A stretch of 21,860 bases of DNA. Origin: Rhizomucor pusillus. Its lineage: Eukaryota; Mucoromycota; Mucoromycetes; Mucorales; Lichtheimiaceae. The DNA lies in contig FWWN02000641.1 in assembly GCA_900175165.2 (NCBI GenBank), forward strand, positions 1-21,860. The letters run 5' to 3'. Each line of letters begins with the position of its first letter. The first letter of the stretch is position 1. A program made the translations under genes and the position numbers. The notes under the pieces are model-generated. The model was given only the letters and a program-made list of their open reading frames with translations. It made no database searches and was not told the DNA's origin. Shown in pieces: positions 18,503-21,860 of this stretch.

Positions 18503-21035
18503 TCACTGCTGGCCGTTATCTTCAAGTTTCTTCTTCTTATTTTTCTTCTTCTTTTTCTTCACCATCGTATCTTTCACTCTCACAATCTTTTTGTCTTCAT
18601 CCTGTTCTTTGTCTCCGTTGACTTCATCGTTATCGACTGGCATCGACCGTTTCTTGGTCATTCGTTCTTCAGGACGAGTATAAAGAACCTCTTGAGCAGC
18701 TGCAGGTTCTACAGAAGTAACAGTAATTGATTGCTGTGTGGCAACGGGTTTGGATGGAGCTGCGGCGTCAGATAGTTGAACATGCCTTTGTTTGATTTCT
18801 TCTCCTGTCTTTGTAATAAACTTAACACCGTCTAACGGCTGCAATAATTTGATTTTTGATTTGATTGCTTCTGCCAACCTCTCGGCAGCCAAGTCCTTAT
18901 CGAGCTGTGCCTCCATGTCTTCTTCTCCGGTTCCAAACAATGCAGAAACGGGTTTTGTCAGTTTGGCCGCAGCCTCCGCTCGTTCGCGATCAATACGCTC
19001 AAGATCAAACGTTGATGGATCCACTTGCTCTTTCGCATTCTTAGCAAATGTTGAACGCATGGATGCTTCCGGAGCTATTGTCGGAATTGTCTTTTCCTTC
19101 TCTTCTTCTTGCTCTAGATCCCTTGTTTGCGGCACGTTGGCCTTGAGACCATCCATTTTGGCACGATGGATAAGCATACCCAGTGCCTGTGCATTCATAC
19201 GCACCAGCGGCGGGCATGGGTTGCAGCAACCGAGCACACCGGCGGACTCGGTTGGCATTCTCTCCACCAAAGCAAAAAGCATGTGGTTAGGCAGCACATA
19301 TCGCAAGGATTCGTCTTCTTCGCGTGCAGTGTGGTCACGCCATGCATGCAGTGCTTTGAAAACAGCATGCTGCTGATTTGTCATGGGATGCCTCCATTTA
19401 CGCAACAAATTCTTCCATCCGTTCGGACCCAAGCCGAATTCGGCGTCGTATACTTCCTTTTCGTATTTTTTGAGCGCGACTTGATTGGAGTTCTGTAACA
19501 CTGTCCGTAAAAGATTTTCATGTCCGGATGATCCTTGTAAAAGTGTGTTGCGCAAACAATCGTATATGTACAGCAGGTAATGTGTATCTGCCCTGGCATA
19601 CTTTAACATTTCTTCAGGGAGCGGTCTATGCATCGAGTTTATATATTAACGACTGCAATTTTTGTGTCGGCAGTTTCCTTCCTGTACCTTATCCGCCAGT
19701 CTGCTAATTGATATTTCTTGTCGGCTTCAACGGAACAAAACTTGTTTAGGAGATATGCAAGACTGTGCATAGGATAATCTAAAGATGATATGACGTGCGT
19801 TAGTCGATGCTACCCTTAAAAGTGCACATGACAGGGCTTTCTCACCTAACGCTTTCGTTGCAAAATATGTATCAAACATATTTACAATGTAAAGACCAAA
19901 GTCGCGTTGTAACCATACGATATCAGACTCTGCACCGTGCAAAACCTAAACAAGTGTTTAATACGCGTTTTTATCCTTTTTCCATGCATATGTCCGGAGA
20001 AGACCAACCTTGACTATCTCGGGATTGGCAAAGTATTCATTTAGTTGCCATAATTGATCACGCAGTGCCAAAGTATCCACGATGTAATCTTCGTCTCGAG
20101 TGCTGATTTGCATTAAACAAGTAAAACCTTGGAAACTGCGATAATTGTGATGTTCCAAATCGATGGCAAGTTCCTTGACTCCTTTGAAATCATCCATCAT
20201 TTTTTCGAGTTGTTCACCGGTTTCTACCCAATGTGCAGATGTTTCGTCAAATGGATGGTATTTTATGGGTTCACGTTCTTGCAGCATGTGGTCCGGATAT
20301 TCCAGATTCATGATTTCATGTTCATATGGATGCGGAATGGTTTTTAATACTTCTGGATCTTCCATGTTACCCGTAAAGACTACGTGATCATGTTACTATC
20401 CAGTAGTTCTATAGTATTCCCACTTTTTTACTTACTTTGGTCCAATGGTACTTTGGCGTGTGGTTTGTACCGAATCTTTGGCACAAAAGGCATGTCGGCG
20501 CCGTTATCCACCTTATCCTTAAACTTTATCTGCGGTCGTACAATATTCTTTGCATAATACAATTCGCCCTCAAGCCTCTTCTTCTTTTCTGGTTTTTGTG
20601 CAGAAGTTTCTTCAGGTCTTATAACTCGGCCTTGCATCTCGTCCAGACAGACATCCTAACGGATACGTTACATACATGCTTGCATTTAAAAAAAGTATCA
20701 AAACTACGACTTACTGCACGCTCAAGTAAGCTGTCGACCACGTCAACCACGTTATCAAACTGATCTACAACATCGTCTACATCCTCGAAACTCTGTATTT
20801 GACTTCCAGTATCCAAAGCTGCGTGCTTTGTGATTCTGTTGGCGATCTGCAAAACTTTTGATCCGCAGATATCGAGATCTTTAGCAAATTGTCGATCTAG
20901 AGACCGGTAAAAGCCAATGTCCTCGGTCGAAATCGCATTGCTAGCTGCAGTGGCTGAAACTAGAGCCTTGAACAGCGATTGCTGATATCCTTTGTAATCT
21001 TGTCGCGGATCGGGTATGGACGGAGACGGTGACAT
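18503..21035 (-). CDS. RRP6: Nuclear exosome 3'-5' exoribonuclease Rrp6/EXOSC10
   Basis: Rrp6 is the nuclear exosome-linked exonuclease that trims 5.8S rRNA, snoRNAs and degrades nuclear RNA. Exons on the minus strand are 21035-20715, 20655-20436, 20379-20009, 19945-19846, 19778-19688 and 19625-18503, giving 741 aa. The PMC2NT domain (about 15-105) starts after [18 protein letters not shown] and would bind the Rrp47 partner. The DEDD-Y nuclease has Exo [10 protein letters not shown] (Asp254, Glu256), Exo [12 protein letters not shown] (Asp312) and Exo [12 protein letters not shown] (Tyr377, Asp381). An HRDC domain follows (about 430-510). The C-terminal tail is charged and ends in a Lys-rich [11 protein letters not shown] stretch, a likely nuclear signal. 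All six exons join in phase, for example [13 protein letters not shown]. The start at 21035 is the first ATG before PMC2NT; the frame stays open upstream to a stop at 21093, so an upstream exon is possible. Confidence 0.95.
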
Positions 21036-21454
21036 TTGATAAAAGAAAGGCAATTGCACTTTGCTCCGCTTTTCAAAATCAAGAAGTTCAACCTAGACAG
21101 TCACAAAAATGGTTATGCTGCATTTGAATTAGGCAGACTACTGCGTATTTAAAAACAGTTGGCGTTTGGAGCATCAAATTGCACGACAATCAAGACAAAT
21201 TTAAACCTTTCGAACCAAATTAATAAATATTCTTGTCGATCTATGGACGACGAAAACTTACCATATTGGTTCAAATTTGCCATGTAGTGCAGTTGCTCCA
21301 AACAATGCCAACCGGATCAATCAGTAAAAAATCCAGGTATTATAGGCTTGTATTCTCTTTTACTTACCGAGTCATCTAAAGAGAAGCAGTCTCAATATTA
21401 GTACCTCTATAATATTCAGAATCCAGGATGAACTGCAAGGCTTACCGTAAAAAC
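21036..21454. other. Interval between the Fanzor-like stop and the RRP6 start, with a chain of splice-like signals
   Basis: No complete coding frame was found. On the minus strand there are donor 21445 (ACG|GTAAGC), branch TACTAAT at 21403-21397, acceptor TTTAG at 21376, an 8-nt piece 21375-21368, donor GTAAGT at 21367, acceptor GGAG at 21296, a 34-nt piece 21295-21262, donor GTAAGT at 21261, and acceptor TCTAG at 21093, which opens into the RRP6 first exon. It could be an RRP6 leader, the 3' tail of the Fanzor-like transcript, or an element end. Confidence 0.45.
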
Positions 21455-21860
21455 CTAAACCCTTTTGGGTCCCACATTCGCAGTGGTGGGTTGATTTGAT
21501 GTTGGTCTGACAAATGGTTCCGGGTGGGCAAGTCCTTGTAAGACTCTTGAAGCGATATAATACATATTCTTAGAGGTATTTACATCTCTGTTCCACAGCA
21601 TGCCGCAGTTTTGACAGTCAAGGATGCCATGGTGAGAGATGTTAACCTCAGTAGTAACATTGCGGAGGCTCCTCGCCAAACAGGAATGACAAACCTAGGT
21701 CGATTGATATTAGCTTTCGTCACTAGTNACTTGCTAGTCGTTCCTTACTTGAGAGGTACGGTACTCGTCAATGGTCACAATAACTGCCTCTCCTCGTGCC
21801 TCGCGCCGTTTAAGCATTCTGTATAGGATGCCGACAATTCCGCTTTCATGTCCTTTGATT
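21455..21860 (-). CDS. TnpB/Fanzor-like RNA-guided nuclease homologue, C-terminal part, 5' end outside window
   Basis: On the minus strand the visible exons are 21860-21749 (open at the edge) and 21694-21455, joined over a 54-nt GT-AG intron, giving 116 complete codons. The visible order is IKGHESG, then VIVTIDEYRTSQVCHSC, then LDCQNCGMLWNRDVNTSKNM, ending near EPFVRP and a short tail PKRV. CHSC and CQNC form a four-cysteine zinc ribbon; NRDVN holds the RuvC-III Asp. This zinc-ribbon plus RuvC-III arrangement, with DEYRTS directly before it, is that of TnpB and its eukaryotic relatives, the Fanzor proteins. An intron and the fungal context favour Fanzor over a bacterial contaminant. RuvC-I and RuvC-II would lie beyond the right edge, so activity cannot be judged. 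A single N at 21727 falls in the intron. The stop is TAG, and the same frame after it continues into a strong splice donor, so the annotated end may not be the ancestral one. Confidence 0.8.

What the first reader, a model, noticed from the sequence alone, without database searches (positions are those of the whole stretch)
21455..21860. Fanzor-like (eukaryotic TnpB) C-terminus at the right edge
The spliced minus-strand product has CxxC...CxxC, the segment DEYRTS before it and NRDVN after it, which together are the C-terminal signature of TnpB/Fanzor RNA-guided nucleases. The copy sits 420 bp upstream of RRP6, a housekeeping gene. It may be an intact programmable nuclease or a relic; only the end is visible.
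Basis: partly seen in the sequence, partly recalled or inferred. Interest (0 to 1): 0.8.

Follow-up and report, generated by a model that had tools for sequence, protein, structure and literature searches.

The report
Fungal Fanzor transposon, right end only
The window ends inside one copy of a repeated jumping gene of a Mucorales fungus; the visible part is the tail of a Fanzor protein (the eukaryotic relative of CRISPR nucleases) and the stretch that probably encodes its guide RNA, a new family of a known kind.

Summary
Confirmed. The minus strand at 21859-21455 is the C-terminus of a Fanzor1-type protein: two exons around a 54-bp intron, the same joint as in an annotated Rhizomucor pusillus protein. 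It has the shifted RuvC-II glutamate six residues before CxxC, the four-cysteine finger and the RuvC-III Asp; it matches PF07282 (8e-11) and, among solved structures, best Guillardia theta Fanzor1. The window is a whole contig, so the rest of this copy is unread; RuvC-I DPG is present in a sister copy (96% DNA identity).

New: the element runs on to a terminal inverted repeat at 21141-21164 and a TA at 21139-21140, 105 bp from the presumed RRP6 start codon. Forty loci of the genome match (window included), and 35 places match the left-end pattern. The last ~160 bp is noncoding, mostly better conserved between subfamilies than the coding exon, with a covarying fold: a candidate guide-RNA scaffold. 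Left junctions read C-T(A/G) in 31 of 34, right flanks vary: a candidate target-adjacent motif. One subfamily has exchanged its 3' module. Three of five close sister copies have broken frames, so this copy may be a relic. Known kind, new family.

The parts
21749..21859 (-). Fanzor coding exon, cut by the contig end (37 codons), with the E_alt glutamate in ...VTIDEYRTSQ
   Evidence: sequence; spliced product to PF07282 E 8.2e-11; D31 E32 Y33 T35 S36 Q37 C39 C42 C64 C67 G68 W71 R73 D74 are among the 25 columns invariant in an alignment of 5 sequences, the window's included
21695..21748 (-). 54-bp intron GTAAGG...CCTAG (one N inside)
   Evidence: same joint in annotated protein P0001; GT...AG of 54-72 bp at the same place in C128, C189, L024, L051, L053, L059 (a strict pattern, 6 of 12 sequences matched, the window itself missed for its N)
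21458..21694 (-). Fanzor last coding exon: C4 zinc finger (CHSC-x21-CQNC) and RuvC-III Asp (NRD)
21455..21457 (-). stop codon TAG
21459..21486 (-). two small hairpins (CCAC/GTGG and ACCC/GGGT) over the last codons; possible 5' part of the guide-RNA scaffold
   Evidence: weak: both double changes come from one sequence (L028)
21376..21445 (-). intron-like signals (GTAAG..., TACTAAT, TTTAG) after the stop codon, shared by the close copies
   Evidence: alignment; splicing not tested
21141..21303 (-). conserved noncoding 3' region with three nested stems and a terminal hairpin: candidate omega-RNA scaffold
21141..21164 (-). right terminal inverted repeat, 24 bp (17-18 of 24 positions match the left repeat)
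21139..21140 (.). TA at the right junction (inferred target-site duplication)
   Evidence: TA in 28 of 31 right junctions
21119..21138 (-). first 20 bases of the right flank: the position a Fanzor guide would be copied from
   Evidence: position only; by analogy with PMC10432273 and PMC10711439
18503..21035 (-). RRP6-type exosome exonuclease (PMC2NT, 3'-5' exonuclease, HRDC), host neighbour; start codon and introns inferred

Best explanation
The right edge of the contig is the right end of a DNA transposon of a Mucorales fungus close to Rhizomucor. The transposon carries a Fanzor1 gene and, downstream of it, a structured noncoding RNA region, and it ends in a short terminal inverted repeat next to TA. 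In a working copy the Fanzor protein would bind an RNA made of this 3' region plus the first bases of host DNA beyond the end. It would then cut DNA that carries those bases behind a short motif, most plausibly ...CTA. That is the empty site left after excision, so repair would copy the element back. Shown here: protein identity, intron, element end, copy number, inverted repeats, conserved fold, left-junction motif. Inferred: TA duplication, RNA expression, guide use, cutting, and the role in keeping the element. This copy is probably decaying, and its upstream part is unread.
For: Protein. Sister copy C128, 95.9% identical in DNA over 723 columns, has the DPG block; its read-through matches SpuFz1 weakly in that block (whole sequence E 0.0072, block alone E 1.1). 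Past coding constraint: of 15 pairs of copies, dN/dS was 0.10-0.16 in the 4 computable ones between subfamilies (stop codons skipped, one with only 36 codons), 0.54 within the family (window-C128), and not computable in 10 for saturation. Ends: 43 matched pieces at 40 loci, window included, to the window's last 761 bases (40 of 48 candidates scored); 23 matches to the right-end pattern, all at loci, against 0 for the reversed control; 35 to the left-end pattern against 1. RNA: 93.5% of cells paired against 91.6 +- 0.3 in shuffles, 8 pairs changed on both sides against 3.5 +- 1.4, 0 of 500 shuffles reaching either; the terminal 162 bp is better conserved than exon 2 in 8 of 10 pairs of representatives.
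Against: RuvC-I, WED and REC of this copy are not on the contig. The strict published search pattern (12-18 residues between the two CxxC) is not met: 21 here, as in P0001 and P0002. For the RNA fold, relatedness is a partial explanation (the shuffles do not keep it); 4 of the 8 double-change pairs lie in the terminal repeat, which a transposase may constrain, and slid structures also show 1-5 such pairs. Rfam has no match there. No transposase was found that goes with these ends, and no complete copy with an undamaged gene was read. The AlphaFold model of a relative failed (pLDDT 34).
Confidence: 0.87

Rival explanations
1. A dead relic only (a sub-case, not an exclusive alternative): a Fanzor transposon copy with no protein, no RNA and no activity left.
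For: 3 of 5 close copies have stops or frame changes; in the window several residues depart from its sisters (V where they have D, A to T in NRDVNA, W to L).
Against: Both visible exons, the splice sites and the stop are undamaged and the fold is kept; identities of 94-96% speak for fairly recent spread.
Confidence: 0.6
2. The C before TA in left junctions is a target preference of the (unknown) transposase and says nothing on Fanzor.
For: Transposases have flank preferences (general knowledge); the C is also seen in C9, a copy of about 170 bp that cannot code for a Fanzor.
Against: A target preference of a TA-inserting enzyme should be mirror-symmetric; here C stands before T(A/G) in 31 of 34 left junctions (background before TA 626 of 3,498) and G after TA in only 5 of 31 right junctions (background 586 of 3,498).
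Confidence: 0.4
3. The gene is a TnpB from bacterial contamination or an IS607-type Fanzor2.
For: NCBIfam's guided_TnpB model reaches 31 bits.
Against: Intron with an annotated counterpart, intron-containing RRP6 105 bp away, 6 protein relatives of which 5 are from Mucorales and 1 is an unnamed JGI protein, best solved match Fanzor1, inverted repeats at the ends.
Confidence: 0.03
4. Copies sit at chromosome ends, i.e. a subtelomeric element with a fixed orientation.
For: 33 of 40 right-end loci have their upstream side within 3.2 kb of a contig end (counted by hand).
Against: Left ends behave alike in the opposite direction: 28 of 35 have the element side within 3.6 kb of a contig end (counted by hand); N runs sit inside copies; no (TTAGGG)3. 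The assembly breaks in the repeat.
Confidence: 0.03

Closest known systems
Fanzor1-like hypothetical proteins of Rhizomucor pusillus (VTP01DRAFT_10274, _10803, _1173, _4168)
   Same: Same family: the window's product is 89% identical to P0001 where aligned, with the same joint and the same end ...NVGPxRV
   Different: Annotated only as hypothetical proteins, P0001 lacking a middle piece that C128 has; no paper under Rhizomucor + Fanzor in the held library
Fanzor1 in Tc/mariner elements (Bao and Jurka 2013, PMC3627910; abstract, sections 6 and 12 and passages read)
   Same: Fanzor1 gene in a TIR transposon flanked by TA; Mucor, Rhizopus and Phycomyces are among their hosts
   Different: The mucoralean families described in the parts I read are MuDR-like with 9-bp duplications or unclassified without clear repeats; here imperfect 24-bp repeats, TA, no transposase found
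SpuFz1, GtFz1 and PpFz1, characterised Fanzor1 nucleases (PMC10432273, PMC11423790; passages read)
   Same: RuvC with zinc finger, RNA from the 3' side of the gene, short motif 5' of the target (CATA, TTAA, ATN)
   Different: Only distantly alike in sequence (GtFz1 E 1.1e-4, SpuFz1 E 0.038, PpFz1 not identified among the matches); candidate motif here would be CTA; RNA untested
Fanzor1 reRNA with three stems that takes in TIR and TSD (Yoon et al. 2023, PMC10711439; passages and section 27 read)
   Same: Three stems, with repeat and TA inside the conserved stretch
   Different: Here predicted from alignment alone; no small-RNA data

Membership tests
Fanzor/TnpB | C4 zinc finger of the OrfB/TNB type (PF07282) | tested here: met
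   42.3 bits, cut-off 26.3
Fanzor/TnpB | [TS][TS]xx-C4-x(5,50)-RD (PMC3627910) | tested here: met
   TSQV-CHSC...CQNC-GMLWN-RD; the upstream D of that motif is off the contig
Fanzor (DPG plus E_alt fingerprint) | Glu six residues before the first CxxC (PMC10711439) | tested here: met
   E-YRTSQV-CHSC
Fanzor (DPG plus E_alt fingerprint) | DPG motif in RuvC-I | not testable with these tools
   beyond the contig end; present in sister copy C128 and in P0001-P0003 and P0006; DPC in L032, DAG in L026
Fanzor (DPG plus E_alt fingerprint) | 12-18 residues between the CxxC pairs (search pattern of PMC10711439) | tested here: not met
   21 residues; P0001 and P0002 also have 21. A search pattern of that study rather than a stated definition of the family
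Fanzor1 | carried by a eukaryotic TIR transposon rather than IS607 | tested here: met
   right TIR and TA in the window; left TIR in relatives; both ends in C9, C14 and C16. IS607 TnpA was not searched for
Fanzor1 | RNA-guided DNA cutting | not testable with these tools
   needs RNA and protein work
Tc1/mariner | TA target-site duplication | tested here: inconclusive
   TA at 28 of 34 left and 28 of 31 right junctions; of the 3 copies with both ends C9 and C14 have TA on both sides, C16 only on the right; no empty site available
Tc1/mariner | DDE transposase between the same ends | tested here: inconclusive
   only a DDE_3 fragment beside another Fanzor copy in L035 (E 5.9e-4, under the cut-off); no complete long element read through

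The most novel reading that the evidence does not exclude
The asymmetric left-junction motif (V)C-TA is the target-adjacent motif of this Fanzor. Insertions then survive in the genome mainly where Fanzor can recognise and re-cut the empty site, so the insertion landscape records guide-directed retention of a cut-and-paste transposon in a eukaryote. Exchange of the 3' RNA/TIR module between subfamilies shows that nuclease and guide-RNA module are separable units.
Probability: 0.35. Interest if true: 0.65.

Novelty: new member of a known kind. Interest (0 to 1): 0.42.

Why it matters
What Fanzors do for their transposons in nature is little known (so stated in PMC10711439). This family offers a natural test: many copies in one small genome, defined ends, an RNA region whose conservation rivals that of the protein, and a one-sided junction motif that predicts the target motif before any experiment.

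Tried and rejected
Subtelomeric element: rejected, see rivals. Extending the contig: impossible, C172 is 21,860 bp. Fold comparison: AlphaFold2 of P0002 on a 4-row alignment gave pLDDT 34, so no fold search was run. Rfam on 20900-21860: one sub-threshold match elsewhere. RRP6 as species label: the five best relatives are 54-58% identical (two Lichtheimia, Zychaea, Phascolomyces, Apophysomyces), and none of the 120 listed of 2,834 is named Rhizomucor, so the host is named only as Mucorales close to Rhizomucor. L024, L026, L028 and L032 gave no convincing match to the left-end sequence. Rows dropped: from the 40-base alignment L035 (no match) and L042 (Ns); L026, L035 and L064 had no match to the hairpin pattern. 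In the 25-row RNA alignment the held right-end loci L038, L045, L048, L054, L055 and L060-L064 were not included, and the ends of L024 and L032 were set by hand. Left junctions: L062 and L102 of 36 were not called, and L097 is doubtful; right junctions: L032 and L055 of 33 were not called, and L038 is doubtful.

Full report
WHAT THE SEQUENCE SHOWS. On the minus strand the contig's last 406 bases read as two open exons and a 54-bp intron, followed by a stop at 21457-21455. The joint is confirmed by an independently annotated protein, R. pusillus VTP01DRAFT_10274 (P0001), which reads DEYHTSQVCHSC across it. GT...AG introns of 54-72 bp lie at the same place in C128, C189, L024, L051, L053 and L059 (a strict pattern that matched 6 of 12 sequences; the window was missed only for its N). 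Intron letters are less conserved (43-51% to the window in four subfamily representatives) than exon 2 (55-68%). The spliced 116 residues match PF07282 with 42.3 bits and NCBIfam guided_TnpB with 31 bits, below that full-length model's cut-off of 100. Among solved structures they match Guillardia theta Fanzor1 first (E 1.1e-4), then two LaTranC chains, TnpB-like protein L79, a chain called Transposase, and SpuFz1 (E 0.038). E_alt, the CxxC pairs and the RuvC-III Asp are in place.

WHY ONLY THE END IS VISIBLE. The window equals contig C172 of a 24.45-Mb, 353-contig assembly. The last 761 bases of the window match at 40 loci, itself included (43 pieces; 40 of 48 candidates scored). Five others are 94-96% identical over about 680-720 bases: C128, C11, C189, C29, C38. 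In 33 of the 40 the upstream side lies within 3.2 kb of a contig end; 28 of 35 left-end matches do the same in the other direction, within 3.6 kb (counted by hand). N runs lie inside copies. The repeat broke the assembly; this is not a chromosome-end effect.

THE ELEMENT. In 15 of 24 copies compared, similarity to the window ends at the same place, window 21139 or the base next to it (eight end 2-57 bases earlier, one ends 6 later). The end reads ...CGCCAACTGTTTTTAAATACGCAG-TA. A pattern from it has 23 matches in the genome, the window's included, all at right ends found, and 0 for the reversed control. The left end was found through two short copies, C9 (about 170 bp) and C16 (about 240 bp), and mostly reads TA-CAGSTTTTTCAAAAATTGTTGGCG; its core pattern has 35 matches against 1 for the control. 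The two ends agree in 17 or 18 of 24 positions as inverted repeats. C9, C16 and C14 (ends 2.4 kb apart, middle not fetched) hold both ends; C9 and C14 have TA outside on both sides, C16 only on the right. I read this as a TIR transposon with TA target sites, as described for Fanzor1 mariners (PMC3627910), but found no transposase that belongs to it.

THE LEFT JUNCTION. Of 36 left junctions examined a script called 34; the base before T(A/G) is C in 31 and T in 3, one of these (L097) from a doubtful junction. The next base out is A 19, G 8, C 6, T 1. In the window plus five loci C precedes TA in 626 of 3,498 cases. On the right side the base after the terminal dinucleotide is A 10, T 8, C 8, G 5 of 31. 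A TA-inserting transposase should give mirror-image flanks. A target-adjacent motif would lie on exactly this side, directly before the guide-matching right flank. This is an inference; a preference of the transposase, or a boundary one base further out, cannot be excluded without an empty site.

THE 3' NONCODING REGION. Between stop codon and end lie 314 bp. Its last 162 bp is better conserved than exon 2 in 8 of 10 pairs of five representatives (the exceptions: L032-L059, 70 against 87%; L059-L024, 65 against 67%). On 25 sequences RNAalifold gives nested stems and a terminal hairpin with 29 pairs, 9 with double changes. For a 35-pair version named by me, 93.5% of cells pair (shuffles 91.6 +- 0.3); 8 pairs have double changes against 3.5 +- 1.4 (0 of 500), and sliding the partners by 1-3 columns drops pairing to 29-47% with 1-5 double-change pairs. 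Against it: helix 1 has no double change, helix 2 has one poorly paired position (11 of 25 unpaired), 4 of the 8 double-change pairs lie in the terminal repeat, and related sequences inflate such counts. The window's own strand folds with z -2.1 (4 of 200 shuffles as good). Two further hairpins overlap the last codons; their evidence is weak, both double changes coming from L028. A guide-RNA scaffold whose 3' side takes in TIR and TA, as reported for Fanzor1 in PMC10711439 (passages and section 27 read), explains this. It would make the flank next to RRP6 the guide of this copy, aimed at the empty site.

MODULE EXCHANGE. L059 and L051 are 81-92% identical to L032 along exon 2 but only 48-73% to the window there. 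From about base 361 of the window's minus strand, the last codons, they turn to 82-95% with the window and, past a stretch shared by all (91-95%), 59-83% with L032. The right-end module was exchanged between Fanzor subfamilies.

STATE OF THE GENE. Between subfamilies dN/dS is 0.10-0.16 in the four computable comparisons; ten were saturated, and window-C128 gave 0.54. Of five close copies, C189, C29 and C128 carry stops or frame changes. The window copy's visible part is open, but with changes such as NRDVNT for NRDVNA I would not call it intact.

HOST. The closest proteins are from R. pusillus (four) and Apophysomyces ossiformis, and RRP6 also lies with Mucorales. I name the host only as a Mucorales fungus close to Rhizomucor. 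The genome carries at least 28 PF07282 matches (57 of 57 candidates scored); DNA comparison of the surroundings of all but the window's own, plus three stretches of the window's family, shows several families.

LITERATURE. Fanzor1 in fungi, in mariners and as RNA-guided nucleases are known (PMC3627910, PMC10432273, PMC10711439, PMC11423790: passages, plus sections 6 and 12 of the first and 27 of the third). Searches of the held library for Fanzor with Mucoromycota and with Rhizomucor found 0 papers; subscription papers are not covered. In the listings and the passages read I recognised no report of a left-junction motif read from insertion sites for a Fanzor.

VERDICT. An ordinary kind of object in a new family, with three features worth following: the one-sided C-TA junction, the conserved 3' RNA fold and the module exchange.

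Noticed in passing
21376-21445: Intron-like signals (GTAAGC, TACTAAT, TTTAG and a second GTAAGT) after the Fanzor stop codon, shared by close copies; splicing in the 3' region could shape the RNA.
   Followed up: partly
L059, L051 (C248, C14): Chimeric elements: coding part of one Fanzor subfamily, 3' noncoding end of another, with a sharp joint at the last codons.
   Followed up: yes
L046 (C222), L041 (C206), L061 (C9), L062 (C16): Internally deleted copies: N-terminal codons joined to the 3' end (L046, L041), and very short copies of about 170 and 240 bp with both repeats.
   Followed up: partly
L035:2908-3204: A DDE_3 transposase fragment about 750 bp upstream of a Fanzor C-terminal reading frame (below the cut-off).
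   Followed up: no
1-699: An HMG-box-like reading frame cut by the left contig end (by eye, not searched).
   Followed up: no
L078, L081, L085, L089, L091: Left junctions with TG instead of TA (5 besides the doubtful L097), while right junctions have 28 TA, 1 TG, 1 CA, 1 CC of 31.
   Followed up: no
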